The position numbers and the translations under genes are program-made. Below are positions 9,931 to 44,554 of a DNA stretch of 64,000 nucleotides, piece after piece. The stretch comes from Calditrichia bacterium (GTDB lineage: Bacteria > Calditrichota > Calditrichia > RBG-13-44-9 > J075). The stretch's first letter is position 1. Every line of letters starts with the position of its first letter. Under the pieces are notes generated by a model that had not been told where the DNA came from, did no database searches, and saw only the letters and a list, made by a program, of their open reading frames with translations. The stretch lies in assembly GCA_028284905.1 (NCBI GenBank), contig JANQQU010000015.1, positions 124,001 to 188,000 on the forward strand, given 5' to 3'.

Positions 9931-9964
9931 TTTGTAGAGAAAATTCATGAATTTTCTCTACAAA
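9931..9964. repeat. Perfect palindromic repeat, copy 1
   Basis: 34-bp perfect palindrome; half-site TTTGTAGAGAAAATTCA. The same 32-bp core occurs at 51823-51858. It could form a long hairpin in RNA. It lies between two Gfo/Idh/MocA genes and may attenuate or terminate transcription. Confidence 0.85.
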
Positions 9965-10006
9965 CCCCACAACGAACAACCAGCAATGATATACAGGAGA
10001 ATCCCA

Positions 10007-11233
10007 ATGCAGGAAAAGAAAATCACCATCAGCCGCCGCGCATTCCTTGGAGGATTCGGGGCAGCGGCTTCATTAACCATTCTTAAACCTTCGCTGGTTT
10101 GGGGAAGCGCCCAAAACGAAAAAATCCGTCTCGGCTTAATTGGCTGCGGGGATCGCGGCACCTGGATAGCCAATCTCTTTCAGGAACATGGGGGATATCA
10201 TATTGCCGCTGCCGCAGATTACTTTCCGGAGAAAGCTAAAGACTTTGGAGAAACATTTAGCATTGATGAAAAAAAACTGTTTAGCGGTTTGTCCGGTTAC
10301 CTCCGGCTACTCGATGCAGATATTGTAGACGCCATCGCAATAGAAAGCCCTTCCTATTTCCATCCTGAACAAGCTGCTGCGGCTGTAGCGGCTGGTTGCC
10401 ATGTATATCTAGCCAAACCGGTGGCCGTGGATGTGCCCGGCAGTAATACCATTAGCGAAAGTGCCGAAAAGGCAACCGCTAAGAAGCAGGTCTTTCTGGT
10501 CGATTTTCAAACCCGCACCGATCCTTTTTACATCGAAGCAGTGAAGCGAATTCACGCCGGCGGATTGGGTAAAATCGCCTTTGCTGAGTCTACTTTCCAT
10601 GGCGATTGTCCCTGGAAAAAATGGTATAAGGCGTTGCAGGAAGATCCCAGTAATCCCGAACACCGTCTCCGGGGCTGGGGCGTGGATCGCGCCTTGGCCG
10701 GCGATATTATCGTCGAGCAAAGTATTCATACAATTGATGTCGATACCTGGGTGATTGACAAGCCTCCAGTTTCCGCTATCGCTTCCGGTGGCCAGCTGGT
10801 GCGCCCGGTCGGAAATGCCTGGGATTACCTGACGGTGCACTACAAATATCCCGATGACATCAGCGTTAACTTCAGCGGGAAACAATTTAAAGGACATGGC
10901 ACTCTCGGCGGCATTCGGAACCGCATATTTGGCTCGGAAGGCGTTTTGGAGGCACAATACGGCGGTGAGGTGCTGTTACGTGGTCAACATTTTTACCGCG
11001 GCGGTAAAACACCCGGCATCTATAAAGAAGGTGCACAACGGAACATTGCCACTTTCCATGAGAATATCAAAAATGGCGTGTATGACAATCCCACTGTCGC
11101 TCCCAGCGTTCGCAGCACCTTAACAGCTATCCTGGGCCGGAATGCCGGCTACAGTGGCAGTCGCCTTACCTGGGACGAACTCCTGAAAAGCACGGAAAAA
11201 CTGGAAGCAGATCTAGACGGATTGAAAGCATAA
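10007..11233 (+). CDS. Tat-exported Gfo/Idh/MocA-family oxidoreductase
   Basis: 408 residues. Twin-arginine signal at the N-terminus (ISRRAFLGGFGAAAS), followed by Rossmann motif LGLIGCGDRGTWIA, the KP motif (YLAKPVAVD) and family C-terminal domain. Tat export implies folding with NAD(P) bound before secretion, as known for Zymomonas glucose-fructose oxidoreductase of the same family. ATG 10007 is chosen because AGGAGA precedes it and the Tat signal starts there; upstream in-frame codons fall in the palindrome at 9931. It ends 3 bp before the SDR gene. Substrate unknown. Confidence 0.87.
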   Translation: MQEKKITISRRAFLGGFGAAASLTILKPSLVWGSAQNEKIRLGLIGCGDRGTWIANLFQEHGGYHIAAAADYFPEKAKDFGETFSIDEKKLFSGLSGYLRLLDADIVDAIAIESPSYFHPEQAAAAVAAGCHVYLAKPVAVDVPGSNTISESAEKATAKKQVFLVDFQTRTDPFYIEAVKRIHAGGLGKIAFAESTFHGDCPWKKWYKALQEDPSNPEHRLRGWGVDRALAGDIIVEQSIHTIDVDTWVIDKPPVSAIASGGQLVRPVGNAWDYLTVHYKYPDDISVNFSGKQFKGHGTLGGIRNRIFGSEGVLEAQYGGEVLLRGQHFYRGGKTPGIYKEGAQRNIATFHENIKNGVYDNPTVAPSVRSTLTAILGRNAGYSGSRLTWDELLKSTEKLEADLDGLKA

Positions 11234-16116: not shown

Positions 16117-17157
16117 ATGAAGAAGTCATTTACTCGACGGGATTTTCTCAAAACCGGACTGGGCTTAACTGCGGCAGGTATTGCGCTCGGCACTTTGGGT
16201 TGCGAAAGCAAAAGCCCGGGCGGCAATGCCGAAAAGACCATAAAGCCGGAAGATCTCTTCAAAATTTCCCTGGCACAGTGGTCCCTGCATAAATCCATTT
16301 TTAAAATCCCCCCGGCAGAAATGGGTTGGGATGTTTGGGGTGAAATTCTCATGACCGACAAGTATCGTACCTTGTTAGGCGGAGAAATCGATCCCATGGA
16401 TTTTGCCAAAGTCGCCCGTCAGGAATTTGACATTGACGCCATCGAGTACGTAAACACCCTCTATTATGACCGCGCAAAGGATATGGAATATTTAAAAGAG
16501 CTAAAAAATGTTGCGGACGGTGAGGGTGTTAAGAGTTTGTTGATTATGTGCGATCGCCTGGGCAATCTCGGCGAGCCGGAAGAAGCCGGCAGGATCCAAA
16601 CTGTAGAGAATCACAAGGAATGGGTGGAAGCTGCAAAATTTCTTGGTTGCCACTCAATCCGGGTAAACGCGCGTAGCGATGACAGTCTCAGCCATGAAGA
16701 ACAAATGAAGCTGGCTGCAGACGGACTTCGCCGACTCTGCGAATTCAGTGAGCCGTTTGGCATCGATGTTATCGTGGAGAATCATGGTGGTATTTCCAGT
16801 AATGGTGCCTGGCTGGCCGGGGTAATGAAAATGGTCGATCATAAGATGGTTGGCACTTTGCCGGACTTTGGTAATTTCCGTATTCAGGGAGACGAATGGT
16901 ATGATCGCTATCTCGGCGTTACAGAGCTAATGCCTTATGCGAAGGCAGTAAGCGCCAAAGCGAACAATTTCGACGAAGCAGGCAACGAAAAGGACACGGA
17001 CTTCCTGAAAATGATGAAAATCGTTCTCGATGCCGGTTATCGTGGATATGTTGGTATCGAATATGAAGGTCCGGTGCTTGGTGAAAAAGATGGCATTCGT
17101 GCGACGAAAGCGCTATTGGAAAAAGTGCGCGCCGAGTTAGCGCCACAGTATGCCTGA
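16117..17157 (+). CDS. Tat-exported lipoprotein, sugar isomerase/epimerase-type TIM barrel
   Basis: 346 residues. Twin-arginine motif [10 protein letters not shown] at residues 5-14 and a lipobox ending LGTLGC at about residue 29, so a Tat-exported lipoprotein. The remainder is an AP_endonuc_2 barrel with [41 protein letters not shown] and YVGIEYEG as metal/substrate strands. It is an exported counterpart to the cytoplasmic barrel at 7895. ATG with strong AAGGAGG. Last gene of the cluster; a strong terminator follows at 17182. Confidence 0.85.
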
Positions 17158-27118: not shown

Positions 27119-30100
27119 TTACTTCAGCAAAATCATCTTTCGGGTTTTCACGAAATGTCCTGCTTGCATCCGATAGAAATACAGTCCGGAACTGACCTGT
27201 TCCCCATTGTCGTTTCGGCCATCCCATTCCAGACTGTAGCTGCCGACGCTCATTTCGTTATTTACCAGGGTTCTAACCCGCTGCCCGAGCACGTTGAACA
27301 CTTCCAGTTTAACATCCACTTTGTAGGTAACTCTGAAATCAATTTGCGTCCGCGGGTTAAAGGGATTCGGATAATTCGCGGAAAGTGCAAAGGATAGATC
27401 GCGGGTTCTGCCCTCCAGAAACCCTAAATAGGCATACGGGTTAAATTGAAATACATCATTTGTATCAACACTGGTGATATATTTCAGGAATAATCTGCCC
27501 GGCGAGTCCATAAAAGTATGCCCGACCTTGAGATCCAGCCAGCATCCCCAAACAACATCTGCTGTAATCCCTTTATTCTCGTTGTTATAAATACTGCCAC
27601 TATCATAGTCGCTATCCATAAAATACAAGTACTCGCGGCCGCCCACGCTGGCAGCCCGCCCCGTATTTGGGTTTATTCCCAGATCCCATTTTAAGTTTGC
27701 AGCAGAACCATTCGCCGCGGATACATTATTATCTTCGACAAAGCAGATATTGATTCGTCGTGGTAAACTGGGATCGGAGATGTCGTATGCAGCTCCCGGA
27801 AATATACCGATGCCGGCATACTCATACCCAAGGTCCCGCCGATAGACTGCACACTCCGAGGTTAGTGTAGAATCGAAAACAATTTCCACACTGTTAAATT
27901 CGTTAGCTGCCAGTGTGCTGCCGAAAAAATTGGACCCGATATCGATACCGCCAAAAAGCAGGTTACCTCCCCAATTCACGCCGGTTAACCAGCGCTCTCC
28001 GATCCATTCCCAGTCATCGACCCGGGGAAAGGGACTTGTGCTTCCCTTTGTAACCAGGAAACCATCAAAGGGATTACTATTATGTCCATACAAATCCGGA
28101 TAGGGTTGATTACTGGCAAGCGTTATCCCCAAATCCAGATTACGCAATTCGTATACGGGCAAGTTGGATGCATCAAGATCATTGAAGTTCACCTGGTATA
28201 CATTATTTTTAACTAAATTTTCATCAAAGATTCTTAGCCCCAGTTGACCGCTGGCATTTCCGGAAATATGCGCCATCAGGTATTCTTCGACCGGACTGCT
28301 TAACGGCGTTACCGGAATACGCACGATATCTTTCCAGACATTGTTATTGCCATCAGAGATATAGAATTCGAATTCGACATCGCCGTTTCCCGGATGCTGA
28401 TTGGATAATTGAAACTGAAAATAGGTATCGTTTGCCGAATATGGCCAGTTGTAGCTGCCAGATGGCGGTAAAAGCGAAATTTGATGATAACCATTCGGCA
28501 TCACAAGATCGCTGACAAATTCAGGCGTTAAGGTTCTGAATTGAAAAACGTGAACATTACTAAATCCGCTGCTTGCTGAATTTTCAATATCTAACGTGTA
28601 ACGAATATTTTCTCCGGGATTCACTGTTCCATCGTGATTGAGATTATCTGAGCCGATTATCGCCGACAGTATTTTTACCGGGCCACTGGTGGTTATATTT
28701 TTTAGCAAATATTGCCAGTTATGGGCGAAGCCCTCCTGGTATTCCACATTTGCATTAGCGCAGAGCCCAACGGAAAATGGTTCGCCAGTCCAGCTATTTG
28801 CCCAAATGCCGTCTCCGGACAAGCTATCATTATGAGCGCCATCATCGTACAGGGGAATTTGGATGACCGGTGAATCGTCCGCGGTTACCAGTTGTAAAAG
28901 GATTGATAAAGCCTCATCATTTTCTGCGCGAAAATGCAGTTCCGTCTCTGCTGGAGAGACAAATACAGTTTCATACGTTAAGTTTATTACTGACGGCACA
29001 TTCCGATACAGGTTTTTCTGAAGCGCAATCGCACTTTGGGCATTGCTTTTCATTTTCTCTATTGCGGTCAAATAATTTCTAGTGATCCCGCCAACAAGTG
29101 CGTAAATGACTTCCTGGGTATCACCTGGCTGCATGTAAAAAGGCCCGGTTGTATTATTTATTCGTCTGTTTCCCGGTGGCAGATTCGTTTCCCGACCATC
29201 AATATCGCCGGCAGATGTAAGCGGGTTGCCATTCAAGGGAAATTTGGTCGGTTGTCCGTAGAATGCGCCGCCACCATGTATAAAAGGCTCAGGGTTAATG
29301 ATGTCATCTGTCGGTATATATCCATTTAGATAATTATACCACATCAAAGTCCCCTTATATTCATCAAATATCGGGTCCGAATATGGTGATCCCCCAGTAC
29401 CTTTATAGGTAAATGAGGTCATCGGCAGATTTTTGAAATCAGGCAATTTTTGCATATTAACAATTGCGGTGTCTCCTGGTGAAGGAACCGTCGGGCCTTG
29501 CAATAAGATGTTACCGATTGCCGGCGGCGTTAAACCGAATTCAGAGAATTCATCATCATCCAAGTAACTGTTGTAGCAATAGGCAATATTTAAAATTGAA
29601 TCGCATCCGGCGAGGTCATCGATATAATTACCAACGTCTAAATCCGCCCATTTACAGACAAACATCGAATCTATCTGAAAACCGGATTTATTAATGATCC
29701 GATAGCGTTGAAAAATCGTTTGCCCCAAAGGACCGCCATAATCACGATACCCCCACCAGGTAATTTGTATTTCCAGGCCGATCGGAGGAGAGCCATACAT
29801 GCCTGTCGTTGCATCTTCATCCAGATCATTTACTACCAGCCAGAGCGTCTGCCCGGCCCCGGGAATACCGGCAATATCTGTCTGCGGATCATATTCTCCA
29901 TTTGAATCTACATCCTCATATGGGGCGCCCAGTTCGGCCGGCCAATTTTCCCAATCCAGTGCATACTGATCCAAAATAGCTTGCGACATCGTGTTAGTGA
30001 CTGAGCTGATTGGAATGTCAAAAAATTCTGCGGCATCCAACAAAACTTCGTGGTCATAAATATTCAGGGATTCCCAATCAGGGCGAACCCGGTAAACGCG

Positions 30101-30508
30101 AGCATTGTGGGGATATGAGGCCACCGGTGGAGATGTCGCCGTGCCCGCTGTGATAATATATCCAGGTGTGAGTCCGCTGCGGTAAGTAGAACCGCCCACT
30201 CGTATCGCCGGATCCAATGGGCGCCGGGTGTCCTGAACAACAGCGCCCCATACCAATCCATCCTGATAAACAGCCGGGGCTGTTCTCCGGGGAAAAATTC
30301 CTCCGGGATAACCGCTCAGCGGGTTATGTCCGGAGAGGCCATCCCATTCAATCCATTGGGAAATGCCGCCAATATTAATCAAAGACGCTTCCGGCGGGGC
30401 ATTTCCTTTGTTCAGCCTCTCCCCCCTTTGTCTTTCCCTCTTATCCTGGGCAAAAACGCTTCCGGAAACAAAGGCCCCCAATAAAATTAATACAAATAGC
30501 CGTTTCAT
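27119..30508 (-). CDS. Large secreted protein with C-terminal FlgD-like sorting domain
   Basis: 1129 residues. Signal peptide 1-20 (LILLGAFVSGSVFAQ). The body is rich in aromatic and Asn/Gly turns, with DNLNHDGTVNPGENIRYTL (a CARDB-like beta-sandwich start) around residues 615-640 and no recognised catalytic motif. C-terminal module of about 90 residues has NYPNPFNPRTQIDF, NVLGQRVRTL, WDGRNDNGEQVSSGLYFYRM, KTRKMILLK, the hallmark of FlgD-like/type IX-secretion sorting ends. Likely surface-bound or released. AAGGAGG precedes ATG. Lies upstream of the propeller kinase on the same strand. Function unknown. Confidence 0.8.
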   Translation of the reverse strand: MKRLFVLILLGAFVSGSVFAQDKRERQRGERLNKGNAPPEASLINIGGISQWIEWDGLSGHNPLSGYPGGIFPRRTAPAVYQDGLVWGAVVQDTRRPLDPAIRVGGSTYRSGLTPGYIITAGTATSPPVASYPHNARVYRVRPDWESLNIYDHEVLLDAAEFFDIPISSVTNTMSQAILDQYALDWENWPAELGAPYEDVDSNGEYDPQTDIAGIPGAGQTLWLVVNDLDEDATTGMYGSPPIGLEIQITWWGYRDYGGPLGQTIFQRYRIINKSGFQIDSMFVCKWADLDVGNYIDDLAGCDSILNIAYCYNSYLDDDEFSEFGLTPPAIGNILLQGPTVPSPGDTAIVNMQKLPDFKNLPMTSFTYKGTGGSPYSDPIFDEYKGTLMWYNYLNGYIPTDDIINPEPFIHGGGAFYGQPTKFPLNGNPLTSAGDIDGRETNLPPGNRRINNTTGPFYMQPGDTQEVIYALVGGITRNYLTAIEKMKSNAQSAIALQKNLYRNVPSVINLTYETVFVSPAETELHFRAENDEALSILLQLVTADDSPVIQIPLYDDGAHNDSLSGDGIWANSWTGEPFSVGLCANANVEYQEGFAHNWQYLLKNITTSGPVKILSAIIGSDNLNHDGTVNPGENIRYTLDIENSASSGFSNVHVFQFRTLTPEFVSDLVMPNGYHQISLLPPSGSYNWPYSANDTYFQFQLSNQHPGNGDVEFEFYISDGNNNVWKDIVRIPVTPLSSPVEEYLMAHISGNASGQLGLRIFDENLVKNNVYQVNFNDLDASNLPVYELRNLDLGITLASNQPYPDLYGHNSNPFDGFLVTKGSTSPFPRVDDWEWIGERWLTGVNWGGNLLFGGIDIGSNFFGSTLAANEFNSVEIVFDSTLTSECAVYRRDLGYEYAGIGIFPGAAYDISDPSLPRRINICFVEDNNVSAANGSAANLKWDLGINPNTGRAASVGGREYLYFMDSDYDSGSIYNNENKGITADVVWGCWLDLKVGHTFMDSPGRLFLKYITSVDTNDVFQFNPYAYLGFLEGRTRDLSFALSANYPNPFNPRTQIDFRVTYKVDVKLEVFNVLGQRVRTLVNNEMSVGSYSLEWDGRNDNGEQVSSGLYFYRMQAGHFVKTRKMILLK

Positions 30509-37278: not shown

Positions 37279-39123
37279 ATGAATCGCAATACCCATCTCC
37301 GGGTGCTATTACGCCTGGCACTCATTTTACTGCTCCTAAACATGCCGATGCTGGCCCAGCAACATTGCTCGTGTTCGTTTAACGGCCTGCGTCATATCAA
37401 TAAAGATATGAATACACGAGTGGGTCCGCCCGCAGCATTTTTGGCAAAAAAAACTGCCACGGCAACCTTTCAGATAAATTATAACGATTTTACCCAGGAA
37501 GCACAGAATGCCTTCCAATATGCTGCCGATATCTGGGCAAGTCTGTTAATTTCCGATGTGCCGATTACTATCGATGCCAGTTGGGTCGGGCTGGACGAAA
37601 ACGTGCTGGGTGCAGCTACGCCCAACAAATATTACCAGTTACTTAATAGTGGCGTTAGTGATACTTGGTATCCTGTAGCAATAGCTAATAAACTAGTCGG
37701 TTTCGATCTAGACTCTCTAGAAGTGGATATTCTAGCCCAATTCAGCAGCAATTTCGATAACTGGTATTTTGGTACCGATGGTAATACGCCCCAAGGCCGA
37801 ATTGATTTCGTAACCGTTGTTCTTCATGAAATTGGCCACGGGCTGGGTTTCGTAGGGTCAATGGGCGTTACAGACGGGCAGGGCAGTTGGGGCGCAGGCT
37901 CGGCTTCTCCTTTTATATTTGATCGCTTTGCTGAAAATGGTAGTGGCCAATCTCTAATTAACTTGAATTTATTTCCCAGTCCATCCACTCTGCTAGCCAA
38001 CCAGTTAACCAGCGGCAATATTTTTTGGAATGGCGTAGAAGCACAGTCTATTAACGGTGGTGTGAAACCAGAATTGTATGCGCCATCAAACTGGTCCGAA
38101 GGCTCCAGCTACGCGCATCTTGATGAGAACCGGTATCCAGCTGGAAACATTAATTCGCTTATGACACCTTCAGTTGGCAATAGTGAGGCTATTCACACTC
38201 CAGGCCCTATCATCTTTGGAGTTTTCAGGGATATAGGCTGGGGCATAAACAGCGACAATACCATACCATATCTCAGTGTTTTTCAGAATCCGGCATTAAA
38301 TGGTATTCTCCATTTTGCCGTTAATGTCGAGAATTTCAGCAGCGGCAATGTTAGTCTGACGGCGAATGACACCAACATTCCATTAAATGCCAATGGGGAG
38401 AACAGCTGGTACGGCACAGCCGAACTTACCCGCTCCGGCGATGTTGCCTTACGCCTCACTGCCGGCACCGCGCAGATCACCCGAACTTTTTCTGTGGCAA
38501 GTTTATCGAAAAATGGAGGCAGTGGCGAATCTTACGACCGGCGCTTCAGTATCGAGTTTTCTGCAAATAGCGTTGCGCAAGATTATTTTCTCCCCATTTT
38601 CGATCATCAGAGCAACCCGAATACAAGTACCGGCAGTTATTCTGTTGGCTTGCCTTCTTTAACGCTTCGGCAGCCGGCAACCGTTATTTTCGAGCACTCC
38701 GCTGAAGATAAATCAGTTTACTACAACGACAATGGAAAGTGGCAGCCACTTCCTACGCGCTATCAGGATGGAAAAATTTTAGCGGAAACCCGCAAGATTG
38801 GTGAGTTCAAATTAGGTCCCCGTTTAACAATAATCGATGGCAGTCGTTTGCTAGGGAATTATCCTAATCCTTTCAATCCGGAAACCCATATTCGCTTTCA
38901 GATAGGCAGGGCAGATCATCTTCAGAATGTTAAACTTGCCGTTTTCAATATTCGCGGGCAGCTACAGCAAGAATTACTCAACAGTCCATTAGCGAATGGT
39001 GAATATCAATTTACCTGGAACGGCCAGAACGCAAATGGAAACCGCGCAGCATCCGGAATTTACATCTATCAATTACAGGTCGGCGGGAACGTCTACTCCG
39101 GAAAAATGATTCTGGTTCGCTAA
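37279..39123 (+). CDS. Secreted HExxH metalloprotease-like protein with FlgD-like sorting end
   Basis: 614 residues. Signal peptide 1-27. Zinc motif His183-Glu184-x-x-His187 in VVLHEIGHGLGFVGSM, with a Met-turn-like SLMTPSVGNSEAIH downstream. The usual metzincin third ligand at position +10 from the first His is Gly193, so a different third ligand must be used. Residues about 335-500 are beta-rich; the final 90 residues form the FlgD-like sorting module (LLGNYPNPFNPETHIRF, ASGIYIYQL, GKMILVR). Presumably a surface or extracellular peptidase; substrate unknown. Confidence 0.78.
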   Translation: MNRNTHLRVLLRLALILLLLNMPMLAQQHCSCSFNGLRHINKDMNTRVGPPAAFLAKKTATATFQINYNDFTQEAQNAFQYAADIWASLLISDVPITIDASWVGLDENVLGAATPNKYYQLLNSGVSDTWYPVAIANKLVGFDLDSLEVDILAQFSSNFDNWYFGTDGNTPQGRIDFVTVVLHEIGHGLGFVGSMGVTDGQGSWGAGSASPFIFDRFAENGSGQSLINLNLFPSPSTLLANQLTSGNIFWNGVEAQSINGGVKPELYAPSNWSEGSSYAHLDENRYPAGNINSLMTPSVGNSEAIHTPGPIIFGVFRDIGWGINSDNTIPYLSVFQNPALNGILHFAVNVENFSSGNVSLTANDTNIPLNANGENSWYGTAELTRSGDVALRLTAGTAQITRTFSVASLSKNGGSGESYDRRFSIEFSANSVAQDYFLPIFDHQSNPNTSTGSYSVGLPSLTLRQPATVIFEHSAEDKSVYYNDNGKWQPLPTRYQDGKILAETRKIGEFKLGPRLTIIDGSRLLGNYPNPFNPETHIRFQIGRADHLQNVKLAVFNIRGQLQQELLNSPLANGEYQFTWNGQNANGNRAASGIYIYQLQVGGNVYSGKMILVR

Positions 39124-41457: not shown

Positions 41458-42756
41458 ATGTATGATCGCAGAGAGTTTCTGGAAAAATTAGGAACTGCCA
41501 TTCCGTTGGGACTTGCCCTTGCCACTCTTGCCCCACTCGGGAAAAATGGCGGCAGCGCAATTGCCGCCCCCAACTTGCCCCCGGAGCAGCTTGCTACGAA
41601 TGAATCCTACTGGGCAAAAATTCAACAAGCCTTTACCGTAGACCGCAGTATCATCAACCTCAACAATGGTGGTGTTAGTCCGGCACCAGCTTACGTCCAG
41701 CAGGCGATGAAACGGCATCTGGATTTTTCGAATAACGCACCAGCCTATACCATGTGGAAAGTGCTGGAACCACAAAGGGAAGGCGTTCGCCATCAATTGG
41801 CCCGGCTATTTGATTGCGAGAATGAAGAAGTTGCCTTAACCCGTAATGCGTCGGAAGGCTTGCAAATTTGCCAGCTCGGTTTTGATCTGAAGGCAGGTGA
41901 TGAGGTATTGACAACCACCCAGGATTACGGGAGGATGATTAATACCTTCAAGCAGCGGGAACGGCGGGAAGGCATTGTCCTCAAGCAATTTCAGATCCCC
42001 ATTCCGGCAGAGGATGATGACACCGTAGTTGCCTTATTCGAAGAAAATATTACTGCGAAAACCCGCTTGATTCTTATTTCGCATATGATCAACCTTACCG
42101 GGCAAATTCTCCCGGTAAAACGGGTAGTGCAGATGGCACGACGGAGAGGCATTCCGGTCATCGTTGATGGTGCCCATTCTTTTGCGCATTTTCCTTTTCA
42201 GCAGCAGGATCTCGATTGCGATTATTTTGCAACCAGCCTGCACAAATGGCTCTTTGCCCCCCATGGTACCGGCATGCTATATGTGAAAAAGGATAAGATT
42301 GAAGGTCTCTGGCCGATGACCCCAGCCGGCGAAAAAATGGATAATGATATCCGGAAATTCGAAGAGATTGGCACGCATCCCGCCGCTAATTATCTGGCCA
42401 TTGCAGAAGCAGTCACTTTCCATGAAGGCATTGGTGCTGAGGCCAAAATAGCCCGCCTCATTTATCTGCGCGATCGTTGGGCGAAAAGATTGCTGGCAAA
42501 TGAACGGGTTAAGCTCCACACCAGCTTAAAAACAGGGCTAGCCGGCGGATTCGCCAATGTGGAAATCGAAGGGATTCGCCCCGGCAAGCTCGCCCGCCAC
42601 CTTTGGAAAAAACATCAGATCATTGTTACTCCGATTAATCATCCGGAGTTTGATGGCATCCGGGTTTCCCCGAGTGTTTATACCACGGTAGCAGAAATAG
42701 ATCGCTTTAGTGAGGCACTGGAAACTGTTATCAAGAAAGGATTACCAACGACATGA
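41458..42756 (+). CDS. Tat-exported class V aminotransferase-like PLP enzyme
   Basis: 432 residues. Twin-arginine signal (YDRREFLEKLG) with hydrophobic core and a cleavage-like AIAA at about residues 35-38. PLP fold of the class V/cysteine desulfurase group: VALTRNASEGLQI, PVIVDGAHSFAH (Asp) and Schiff-base Lys263 in TSLHKWLFAPHGTG. Similar to isopenicillin N epimerase-like proteins. Tat export allows secretion with PLP bound. Overlaps the RidA gene by four bases (ATGA). Substrate unknown. Confidence 0.86.
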   Translation: MYDRREFLEKLGTAIPLGLALATLAPLGKNGGSAIAAPNLPPEQLATNESYWAKIQQAFTVDRSIINLNNGGVSPAPAYVQQAMKRHLDFSNNAPAYTMWKVLEPQREGVRHQLARLFDCENEEVALTRNASEGLQICQLGFDLKAGDEVLTTTQDYGRMINTFKQRERREGIVLKQFQIPIPAEDDDTVVALFEENITAKTRLILISHMINLTGQILPVKRVVQMARRRGIPVIVDGAHSFAHFPFQQQDLDCDYFATSLHKWLFAPHGTGMLYVKKDKIEGLWPMTPAGEKMDNDIRKFEEIGTHPAANYLAIAEAVTFHEGIGAEAKIARLIYLRDRWAKRLLANERVKLHTSLKTGLAGGFANVEIEGIRPGKLARHLWKKHQIIVTPINHPEFDGIRVSPSVYTTVAEIDRFSEALETVIKKGLPTT

Positions 42757-43217
42757 GAATACTTGTTACGATCATTTTACTCGCTACTTTTTTCTCCTGC
42801 GAAAAACACACAGCCCCTCCTGCGGAGAAGATTACCAAGGAGATCATATCGACCCCGAACGCACCGGCGGCTATTGGGCCCTATTCCCAGGCAATCCGCG
42901 TCGGTAACCGCCTTTACCTTGCCGGGCAAATCGCCCTGGATCCCACTAGCGGAGAAATGGTTGAAGGCATTGAAGCACAGACTCGCCGGGTGCTGGATAA
43001 TATTAAAGCCGTTCTCGATGCCGCTGGTTTTACCCTCAACGATGTTGTGCAAACCCAGGTCTTCATTGCTGATATGAATAACTACGGCATTTTTAATGGC
43101 ATTTATGCCGAGTATTTTCCCAGCAATCCACCCGCCCGTGCAGTTGTGGAGGTGAGCCGCTTACCGAAAGATGCGCTGGTAGAGGTAATGATGGTCGCGG
43201 TTAGGACAGGCGACTAA
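42753..43217 (+). CDS. RidA-family lipoprotein
   Basis: 154 residues. Signal peptide with lipobox FFSC (Cys16), so a lipid-anchored form; most RidA proteins are cytoplasmic and about 128 residues. The RidA domain from residue 30 has PAAIGPYSQAI, YLAGQIALDP, conserved Arg129 in PPARAVVEV and Glu144 in ALVEVMMVA, the residues that bind enamine/imine intermediates. RidA hydrolyses reactive enamines from PLP enzymes; the upstream exported PLP enzyme, overlapping by four bases, is an apt partner. Confidence 0.88.
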   Translation: MRILVTIILLATFFSCEKHTAPPAEKITKEIISTPNAPAAIGPYSQAIRVGNRLYLAGQIALDPTSGEMVEGIEAQTRRVLDNIKAVLDAAGFTLNDVVQTQVFIADMNNYGIFNGIYAEYFPSNPPARAVVEVSRLPKDALVEVMMVAVRTGD

Positions 43218-43582: not shown

Positions 43583-44554
43583 TTATTTCATATACAACAT
43601 CTGACGCACCTTGTTAAATCGCCCGACTGTGCTTTCCGCCTGTAGCCGGTACAGATATATTCCCGAAGCAACCGCCCGGCCGTTAATATTCTGGCCGCCC
43701 CAATTGATCTGATGAAATCCGGCAGACTCACTACGATCGACCAGACGATTTACTTCCCTGCCGGCAGTGTCATAAATACTTAATTGAACCCGTGAAGTTT
43801 GCGGCAAGGAATAACGAATAATAGTTTCTCCGTTAAACGGATTTGGGTAATTCTGATGCAAGGCAAACAGCTCAGGCTCCGTACCGTGCTGATCATCCAT
43901 GCCGGTAACTACAGCAGCGTCGAGGTTTACGTCGAAAGTGCCGTATTCGTTGTCTCCCTGGGTGCTAACCGGTATTATTCTCGCTGCGGCATCGGGGCTG
44001 GAAGCAAAGGGATCGTTGGGAATAACCGGGTCACCTTCAAAATAGATTTGGGTAGTAAGAATCGTGCCGCCGTCCGGAGAAACAACCCGGTAATGGAAAT
44101 GCTGGGGACGAGACCCGTAATATCCGGGTCGAATTGACTCAAACGCATACTCGCCATTTTCATTCGTTAGCATTTGCCCACGTAAATTGTAAGGATCGTC
44201 ATTGGGTGTGCACTGTTCGAAAACACTGTAACACCCTGCATCATTGGCATGCCAGATATCCACAATGGCGCCGCCCAGCGGTGTTTCGCAATCATCCGCA
44301 AAAACTTTTCCGCTGATGAACATACGTTGTCCGGGCTCTTCCGGCGCAGCCAATATAGTGCGAACCGGGGGATTCTCGCTGTAAAACGGACCGACTACAT
44401 CACTGGTGGTTAGTTCACAGTCGGCAAGCAACGATCGGGGAAACATCAGGGCAGCCGCGCTTCCCATTAACCCAATCTTTAGAAAATCTCTGCGATTTAG
44501 ACTGCGAAAAGCGGGGGTATGGGACTTAATTAAAACCGTTTGCTTTTTGGACAT
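43583..44554 (-). CDS. Tat-exported intradiol ring-cleavage dioxygenase with FlgD-like sorting end
   Basis: 323 residues. Twin-arginine signal LNRRDFLKIG at 19-28. Dioxygenase core about 46-220 with iron ligands Tyr109 (GCYSVF), Tyr146, His152 and His154 (PGYYGSRPQHFHY), as in protocatechuate 3,4-dioxygenase-type enzymes that cleave catechols between the hydroxyls using Fe(III) and O2. The last 90 residues are a FlgD-like sorting module (NYPNPFNGETIIRY, ASGIYLYRL). Tat plus a C-terminal sorting domain suggests export in folded, metal-loaded form and then surface placement. No aromatic-degradation genes adjoin it. Confidence 0.86.
   Translation of the reverse strand: MSKKQTVLIKSHTPAFRSLNRRDFLKIGLMGSAAALMFPRSLLADCELTTSDVVGPFYSENPPVRTILAAPEEPGQRMFISGKVFADDCETPLGGAIVDIWHANDAGCYSVFEQCTPNDDPYNLRGQMLTNENGEYAFESIRPGYYGSRPQHFHYRVVSPDGGTILTTQIYFEGDPVIPNDPFASSPDAAARIIPVSTQGDNEYGTFDVNLDAAVVTGMDDQHGTEPELFALHQNYPNPFNGETIIRYSLPQTSRVQLSIYDTAGREVNRLVDRSESAGFHQINWGGQNINGRAVASGIYLYRLQAESTVGRFNKVRQMLYMK

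What the first reader, a model, noticed from the sequence alone, without database searches (positions are those of the whole stretch)
43583..44554. Tat signal and FlgD-like sorting domain on one dioxygenase
The intradiol dioxygenase has both a twin-arginine signal (Fe(III) loaded before export) and a C-terminal YPNPFN-type sorting module, which elsewhere belongs to Sec-exported proteins secreted across the outer membrane. A Tat-dependent route into such secretion would be unusual.
Basis: partly seen in the sequence, partly recalled or inferred. Interest (0 to 1): 0.5.

Follow-up and report, generated by a model that had tools for sequence, protein, structure and literature searches.

The report
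Tat-exported cargo for type IX secretion
A ring-cleaving iron enzyme from a Calditrichota bacterium carries both the address tag for export in a folded state and the tag for type IX secretion, and the same pair of tags turns up in related and unrelated enzymes of other bacteria, which suggests a two-step export route that the reviews leave out.

Summary
The 323-aa ORF at 43583-44554 (-) joins a twin-arginine leader (NRRDFLK, residues 20-26), an intradiol dioxygenase (46-214; closest structure SACTE_2871) and a type A type IX sorting domain (about 231-323). The leader is the best TAT_signal match in the 8.55 Mb genome, the tail passes Pfam and NCBIfam cut-offs, and the genome has TatC, SprA, PorU and 24 PorV-family proteins. 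At home the pairing was seen once: 1 of 201 tail proteins read, 1 of 30 Tat hits read. Elsewhere it recurs. An ortholog in another genus and relatives in Kapaibacterium, Marinimicrobia and an unnamed bacterium keep both signals. At three places inside Flavobacteriaceae the enzyme has the tail where its relatives have a lipoprotein-like cysteine, though behind R-K or R-N leaders. In the unrelated DUF1501 family 27 of 85 proteins have a tail, all 27 with a Tat-like leader (25 RR), in 21 of 38 genomes; Pfam alone confirms the tail in 9 of 13 scanned. Reviews whose passages I read route type IX cargo through Sec. I read this as a recurrent Tat-to-type-IX route. Transport itself is inferred, not shown.

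The parts
43583..44554 (-). Whole gene: Tat leader + intradiol dioxygenase + type IX sorting domain, 323 aa plus stop
   Evidence: ORF list; Pfam; ortholog L010/L046 at 51-53% identity with both signals
44423..44554 (-). Tat leader, residues 1-44; probable cut after A44 (SLLA|DC), inferred
   Evidence: TAT_signal match 26.4 bits, best in genome; own Tat HMM 25.9 bits; model helix 21-37
44477..44497 (-). Twin-arginine motif NRRDFLK, residues 20-26
   Evidence: read in the sequence; RRDFL identical in the ortholog
43913..44419 (-). Intradiol ring-cleavage dioxygenase domain, residues 46-214
   Evidence: PF00775; VIA-align Z 25.5, rmsd 1.1 over 155 residues to 4ilt SACTE_2871
44093..44230 (-). 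Span holding the four iron-ligand positions Y109, Y146, H152, H154
   Evidence: invariant in 69 of 69 aligned sequences; assignment as 2-His/2-Tyr Fe(III) ligands is from knowledge of the family
43865..43912 (-). Linker between enzyme and tail, residues 215-230; possible PorU cut region (inferred)
   Evidence: pLDDT under 50 at 219-227
43586..43864 (-). T9SS type A C-terminal sorting domain, residues 231-323, seven-stranded Ig-like fold
   Evidence: TIGR04183, PF18962, PF13860 over cut-off; tail model pLDDT 94.2; PorU 6za2 Z 10.8, FlgD 3osv Z 9.9
43832..43849 (-). YPNPFN motif of the sorting domain, residues 236-241
   Evidence: read in the sequence; YPNP invariant in 11 of 11 tail-bearing dioxygenases

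Best explanation
A surface or secreted intradiol catechol dioxygenase that leaves the cell in two folded steps. (1) It folds and binds Fe(III) in the cytoplasm (inferred). (2) The NRRDFLK leader takes it through the Tat translocase and is cut near A44 (leader shown by sequence, transport inferred). (3) In the periplasm four cysteines (46, 89, 108, 115), kept in all seven members of its clade, may form disulfides (inferred). (4) The C-terminal sorting domain hands it to the SprA/PorV translocon, and PorU may cut the tail at the linker and anchor or release the enzyme (genes shown present, action inferred). (5) Outside, it opens catechol rings of aromatic compounds (inferred from fold and ligands). 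The wider claim: Tat is a recurrent inner-membrane entrance to type IX secretion in the FCB superphylum, used at least by this enzyme and by DUF1501 proteins.
For: Tail over cut-off in Pfam and NCBIfam, leader first of 33 in the genome. A Tat HMM trained on 24 other Tat ORFs of this genome gives the finding 25.9 bits, the other 200 tail proteins at most 3.6, the 27 DUF1501 tail proteins 6.2-29.3 and the 58 tail-less DUF1501 proteins a median of 16.1. Genome: TatC 227.5 bits, SprA_N 128.2, PorU 810.3 against cut-off 420, 24 PorV-family proteins over cut-off. Both signals kept in an ortholog at 51-53% identity (TIGR01409 19.2 bits over cut-off 16.7) and, by motif, in L047, L048, L049. Tree: the window and L046-L051 form one clade (100/99), all with tails; at least four changes of the tail label are forced, the other tail rows lying at three places inside Flavobacteriaceae. 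In the 36-row Bacteroidota clade all 30 readable tail-less rows have a cysteine at 22-28 right after the leader and none of the 4 tail rows does. SprA_N in 38 of 38 relative genomes, TatC in 35. DUF1501: 27 of 85 over cut-off with tail, all with Tat-like leaders, 25 RR and 2 RK.
Against: No transport experiment. At home it is the only such protein seen. The genome's second intradiol enzyme has a Sec-lipoprotein-like leader. TAT_signal is 0.1 bit under its cut-off on the single protein, and TIGR01409 does not list it. In the other ten tail-bearing dioxygenases Pfam's TAT_signal gives nothing at E up to 0.1 (L049 11.7 bits at E up to 10); TIGR01409 passes in L046 only of the three scanned (L048 15.8, just under; L049 none). 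With my Tat HMM L050 (1.7), L051 (0.4) and L053 (2.0) lie in the range of the Sec-type tail proteins, and all six of L050-L054 and L100 lack a strict RR pair. For L046-L049 Pfam's FlgD_ig passes but Por_Secre_tail does not; TIGR04183 passes in the three scanned. Of 13 DUF1501 tail proteins scanned, four (L307, L316, L319, L332) have no tail model over the Pfam cut-off and L370 is marginal. TatC was not found in G045, G049 and G056, all MAGs; the first two hold a tail-bearing dioxygenase and G056 a tail-bearing DUF1501. The motor parts PorK-N/GldK-N and TatA/B were not searched. Relatives were fetched by two short peptide seeds, so counts over relatives are no census.
Confidence: 0.75

Rival explanations
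1. The leader looks like Tat but works through Sec. The protein is an ordinary Sec-exported type IX substrate with arginines in its n-region.
For: By a crude rule 193 of 201 tail proteins have a plausible signal and, apart from the finding, none scores as Tat; reviews describe Sec signal peptides on T9SS cargo (passages); the paralog L043 looks Sec-exported; RK/RN leaders in the Flavobacteriaceae relatives.
Against: Full NRRDFLK consensus with a mild h-region (mean hydropathy 1.84 against 2.35-3.73 in the six other RR-bearing tail proteins); top Tat match of the genome; motif kept in distant orthologs; DUF1501 tail proteins carry the same consensus.
Confidence: 0.13
2. The protein is Tat-exported but stays in the periplasm. 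The tail is vestigial or an ordinary Ig-like binding domain.
For: FlgD_ig-type Ig folds are common and many unrelated Ig-like domains score Z 9-12 with the tail model.
Against: TIGR04183 and PF18962 over cut-off; genomes of all 10 tail-bearing relatives hold SprA_N; in Flavobacteriaceae the tail stands where relatives have the lipid-anchor-like cysteine.
Confidence: 0.09
3. Chimera or annotation artefact: two genes fused by assembly error.
For: The genome is in 93 contigs.
Against: The same architecture lies in four other assemblies (L046-L049) under at least three project names, at 42-52% identity.
Confidence: 0.01

Closest known systems
SACTE_2871 of Streptomyces sp. SirexAA-E (PDB 4ilt, 4ilv): dioxygenase fused to a carbohydrate-binding module
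   Same: Closest solved structure (Z 25.5, rmsd 1.1 over 155 residues, 34% identity); an intradiol enzyme fused to a second domain (entry title). The strain name and that the enzyme is secreted are recalled.
   Different: Carbohydrate-binding domain instead of a type IX sorting domain; Gram-positive host (recalled); its export route was not checked.
Type A T9SS cargo (TIGR04183/PF18962, e.g. gingipains of Porphyromonas gingivalis)
   Same: C-terminal sorting domain of the same family and a fold shared with the PorU and PorZ tails; genome has SprA, PorU, PorV.
   Different: Known cargo is described with Sec signal peptides (PMC9127263, PMC9251779, PMC5445135, passages read); this one has a Tat leader.
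Tat-then-type-II secretion
   Same: Two-step secretion of a protein exported by Tat; the Tat-T2SS pairing is stated in PMC9127263 and PMC5449463 (passages read).
   Different: The outer-membrane step here is type IX with a C-terminal sorting domain.
Lipoprotein-like intradiol dioxygenases of Bacteroidota (e.g. L069, L088, L093)
   Same: Same enzyme family and the same kind of R-x-x-F leader start.
   Different: Cysteine after the leader, no sorting domain.
DUF1501 (PF07394) proteins with Tat-like leader and type IX tail
   Same: Same pairing of signals in 27 of 85 proteins.
   Different: Unrelated main domain.

Membership tests
Intradiol ring-cleavage dioxygenase (PF00775) | Sequence match over the curated cut-off and the intradiol fold | tested here: met
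   104.5 bits, cut-off 27.3; 4ilt Z 25.5
Intradiol ring-cleavage dioxygenase (PF00775) | Two Tyr and two His iron ligands | tested here: met
   Y109, Y146, H152, H154 invariant in 69 of 69; identity as ligands from family knowledge
Intradiol ring-cleavage dioxygenase (PF00775) | Fe(III)-dependent ring cleavage | not testable with these tools
   needs assay
Tat substrate | Twin-arginine motif with mild h-region | tested here: met
   NRRDFLK, hydropathy 1.84; own Tat HMM 25.9 bits, other tail proteins at most 3.6
Tat substrate | Match over the curated cut-off of a public Tat model | tested here: inconclusive
   PF10518 22.6 bits against 22.7 on the single protein but 26.4 and over cut-off in the genome search; TIGR01409 not listed at E up to 10
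Tat substrate | TatC in the genome | tested here: met
   227.5 bits
Tat substrate | TatA/TatB in the genome | not tested
Tat substrate | Export depends on TatC | not testable with these tools
   needs mutant
T9SS type A cargo | C-terminal sorting domain over cut-off | tested here: met
   TIGR04183 35.3 bits (cut-off 23), PF18962 33.6 (cut-off 27)
T9SS type A cargo | Outer-membrane machinery in the genome (SprA, PorV, PorU) | tested here: met
T9SS type A cargo | Inner-membrane motor PorK-N / GldK-N | not tested
T9SS type A cargo | N-terminal Sec signal peptide (as described in reviews) | tested here: not met
   leader is Tat-type by motif and models; filed as a variant, not as a standard member
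T9SS type A cargo | Secretion depends on SprA | not testable with these tools
   needs mutant
Bacterial lipoprotein | Lipobox cysteine after the h-region | tested here: not met
   SLLADC has Asp before Cys46; Cys46 is invariant in all 11 tail-bearing dioxygenases and lies where the enzyme domain starts. L048 alone reads VLAGC.

The most novel reading that the evidence does not exclude
Type IX secretion has a general second inner-membrane entrance: a whole class of its cargo is folded, and where needed metal-loaded, in the cytoplasm, exported by Tat and then passed folded through SprA, in several phyla. Enzymes can switch between a lipid anchor and the type IX tail while keeping the same kind of leader. 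In Bacteroidota even leaders with R-K or R-N in place of R-R may serve.
Probability: 0.65. Interest if true: 0.68.

Novelty: new variant of a known kind. Interest (0 to 1): 0.55.

Why it matters
The type IX reviews whose passages I read describe cargo as Sec-exported, and one methods review gives Tat as an inner-membrane route for type II only (PMC5449463, passage). If Tat feeds type IX, the outer-membrane step must take proteins that crossed the inner membrane already folded. That is a sharp in vivo test of the folded-cargo model of SprA, and it would let bacteria put cofactor enzymes that cannot fold after Sec export on their surface. Secretome predictions that demand a Sec signal would miss these proteins.

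Tried and rejected
Instead 129 stretches around 201 listed tails were read. The tail lists are capped (150 rows; one search lists only part of its rows), so the genome may hold more than 201. Five of the 201 frames reach the edge of the fetched DNA.

Lipoprotein reading of Cys46: rejected, because the residue before it is Asp and Cys46 is invariant in all 11 tail-bearing dioxygenases; Cys46, 89, 108 and 115 are kept in all seven clade members.

Gene neighbourhood as a clue to substrate: the gene lies between a class V aminotransferase and RidA-family pair on one side and an aldehyde dehydrogenase on the other. Flanks of L046, L048 and L053 showed me no shared partner by eye. No substrate inference drawn.

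Paper searches for Tat together with type IX, for intradiol enzymes with Tat or T9SS and for Tat in Bacteroidetes listed no paper whose listing or searched passages describe Tat-dependent type IX cargo; the library holds open-licence papers only and I read passages, not whole papers. PMC10925705 lumps 'Sec or Tat' with T2SS, T5SS and T9SS in one general sentence. PMC11928666 notes T9SS-tail proteins without a detected signal peptide.

Search for the Streptomyces enzyme's paper: not held.

One search read minus-strand loci in the wrong orientation and stopped with an error; repeated correctly. Five of the 30 Tat hits read there (L141, L142, L144, L147, L149) are short frames that may not be genes.

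Other Ig-like domains score Z 8-12 with the tail model, so the fold alone does not prove type IX cargo; the sequence models do that work. My tail HMM was built from the 201 tails, the finding's included, so its 119.9 bits for the finding are partly by construction.

They brought results against the reading (weak or absent public Tat-model matches in most relatives, no tail model in L332) and one for it (the Tat HMM control); I left the odds as they were.

Full report
WHAT IS THERE. The ORF at 43583-44554 (-) encodes 323 residues from an ATG. From the N-terminus: a leader with NRRDFLK at 20-26 and a mild hydrophobic stretch; an intradiol dioxygenase (PF00775, 104.5 bits); a short linker; and a C-terminal domain over cut-off for FlgD_ig, Por_Secre_tail and TIGR04183. 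TAT_signal is 22.6 bits on the single protein against a cut-off of 22.7, and 26.4 bits in the genome search, the best of 33 matches in 8.55 Mb; NCBIfam's TIGR01409 does not list it. An AlphaFold2 model (69 sequences, mean pLDDT 84.5) matches the SACTE_2871 dioxygenase domain 4ilt at Z 25.5, rmsd 1.1 over 155 residues. The tail alone models at pLDDT 94.2 as a seven-stranded domain. Its matches include PorU 6za2 (Z 10.8, 27% identity) and FlgD 3osv (Z 9.9), but also unrelated Ig-like domains at Z 9-12. Y109, Y146, H152 and H154, which I take from family knowledge as the iron ligands, are invariant in 69 of 69 aligned sequences.

THE MACHINERIES. The genome is an unnamed assembly; its family includes G006, whose ortholog lies on a contig of 98,989 bases, the length of the contig of L046, a MAG titled Calditrichia bacterium, so L010 and L046 are taken as the same gene. 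The genome has one TatC (227.5 bits), one SprA_N (128.2 bits), one PorU over cut-off (810.3 bits) and 24 PorV-family proteins over cut-off. TatA/B and the PorK-N motor were not searched.

HOW RARE AT HOME. I listed 201 distinct tail hits, fetched their DNA and read the N-termini. By a crude rule 193 have some plausible signal. Seven have RRx[FLIVM] followed by a hydrophobic stretch; six of these are strongly hydrophobic (2.35-3.73) and look Sec-like, and only the finding's protein has the Tat consensus (1.84). RRxF[LI]K is in 1 of 201 N-termini, in 0 of 146,898 residues further in, and in 5 of 100,500 shuffled N-termini. From the other side, 30 of 33 TAT_signal hits were read. Only this one has a tail (119.9 bits to an HMM built from the 201 tails, its own included; next best 0.2). 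Three of the 30 run off the fetched DNA (L125, L129, L130) and five are short frames. As a control I built a Tat-leader HMM from the 24 clear Tat ORFs among them, the finding left out: finding 25.9 bits, other 200 tail proteins at most 3.6 (for each the first 125 residues after the first start were scanned).

RELATIVES OF THE ENZYME. Only 2 of 40 genomes of the phylum encode a relative of the catalytic part at E 1e-15: this one and G006. A scan of genome contigs seeded by two short peptides gave 74 loci. Ten of the 74 have a tail: L046-L054 and L100 (in Pfam, FlgD_ig alone passes for L046-L049 and Por_Secre_tail for the other six; TIGR04183 passes in L046, L048 and L049, the three scanned). 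With the window that makes 11: five with RR (window, L046 Calditrichia, L047 Kapaibacterium, L048 unnamed bacterium, L049 Marinimicrobia) and six with RS, RK or RN (L050-L054, L100; read). My Tat HMM gives L046 28.3, L047 10.8, L048 11.7, L049 17.8, L052 14.9, L054 9.2, L100 9.0, but L050 1.7, L051 0.4 and L053 2.0, no better than Sec-type tail proteins. A maximum-likelihood tree of the catalytic domain (75 rows) puts the window and L046-L051 in one clade (100/99), all with tails. The other four tail rows fall at three places inside Flavobacteriaceae, and starred branches force at least four changes of the label; three gains there are the simplest reading, not the only one. The tree warns of long branches, among them where two Pseudomonadota rows meet the seven-row clade.

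ANCHOR SWAP. The 36-row, almost wholly Bacteroidota clade of that tree (one row, L095, is titled Thalassovita) is informative. Of 32 rows without a tail, 30 have a readable N-terminus and an intact gene. All 30 have a cysteine at 22-28 straight after the leader: 25 fit my lax lipobox pattern and 5 have His or Lys two places before the cysteine. L091 is broken off by a repeat-rich stretch and L102 lacks its N-terminus. None of the 4 tail rows has such a cysteine. Ignoring relatedness, that split has a one-sided exact probability of 2e-5. So the same enzyme, behind the same kind of leader, is either lipoprotein-like or given the type IX tail.

A SECOND, UNRELATED FAMILY. To see whether the pairing is a quirk of one enzyme, I searched DUF1501 (PF07394) in the 38 genomes behind my loci that could be searched: 87 rows in 31 genomes, 85 over cut-off. 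I chose this family from memory because I recalled Tat leaders and suspected tails, so the rate below is not typical of Tat families. All 87 were read (30 loci, 20 regions, 37 regions; L303 is cut by a contig end). The two below cut-off (L334, L371) show no Tat leader and look sulfatase-like by eye. Of the 85, 27 have a tail by my HMM: 26 at 33 bits or more, and L370 marginal at 20.8. All 27 have a Tat-like leader, 25 RR and 2 RK (L317, L318); in L309 the motif lies 89 residues into the longest frame, so its start must be internal. They score 6.2-29.3 bits with the Tat HMM, against a median of 16.1 for the 58 tail-less ones. They lie in 21 of the 38 genomes. Of 13 scanned with Pfam, 9 have Por_Secre_tail or FlgD_ig over cut-off and 4 (L307, L316, L319, L332) do not. 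TIGR04183 passes in 4 of 4 scanned, and TIGR01409 in 2 of those 4 (L312, L326).

MACHINERIES IN RELATIVES. SprA_N in 38 of 38. TatC in 35 of 38, not found in G045, G049 and G056, all MAGs. So 8 of 10 genomes with a tail-bearing dioxygenase, and 20 of 21 with a tail-bearing DUF1501 protein, have TatC. L081 was not held.

WHAT PRINT SAYS. Passages read: T9SS cargo has Sec signal peptides (PMC9127263; PMC9251779; PMC5445135); [quoted passage not shown] One review lumps Sec or Tat with T2SS, T5SS and T9SS in general terms (PMC10925705). Searches showed me no paper that describes Tat-dependent type IX cargo; the library holds open-licence papers only.

MECHANISM AND LIMITS. Most likely the enzyme folds in the cytoplasm, crosses by Tat, and is secreted by SprA/PorV on its tail. 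Shown: both signals, key genes of both machineries, conservation, recurrence. Inferred: iron loading before export, transport, tail removal, surface location, substrate. Against obligate Tat: the genome's second intradiol enzyme (L043) has a Sec-lipoprotein-like N-terminus. The R-K, R-N and R-S leaders leave open whether those members use Tat.

VERDICT.

Noticed in passing
L050:2504-3898, L051:1822-3204: The two Neomarinimicrobiota members carry a Dockerin_1 match between dioxygenase and sorting domain (30.1 and 37.6 bits, cut-off 22.9).
   Followed up: no
rows, e.g. L053, L058, L069, L093: In the 36-row Bacteroidota branch of this enzyme the readable leaders start with R-K or R-N, not R-R; most of the genomes searched have TatC (35 of 38). 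Whether R-K leaders use Tat in this phylum is open.
   Followed up: partly
window 41458-42756 (+) and 42753-43217 (+): A class V aminotransferase with a Tat-like leader (DRREFLEKLG) overlaps a RidA-family protein with a lipoprotein-like start, next to the dioxygenase.
   Followed up: partly
window 27119-30508 (-) and 37279-39123 (+): Two more tail-bearing proteins in the window, with Sec-like leaders: ordinary type IX cargo for comparison.
   Followed up: no
window 9947-11233 (+) and 16117-17157 (+): Two Tat-leader proteins without tails, a GFO/IDH/MocA oxidoreductase and a xylose-isomerase-like TIM barrel.
   Followed up: partly
L043 (G000:C25:242433-242864): A second intradiol-type dioxygenase of the genome with a Sec-lipoprotein-like leader and no tail.
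   Followed up: partly
L091 2501-3400: In Flavobacterium restrictum the dioxygenase gene is cut short inside a stretch of repeated sequence.
   Followed up: partly
G000:C39:167873-172162 (L151) and C20:86949-88007 (L152): Two further PorU-like proteins below the cut-off (240.6 and 120.4 bits).
   Followed up: no
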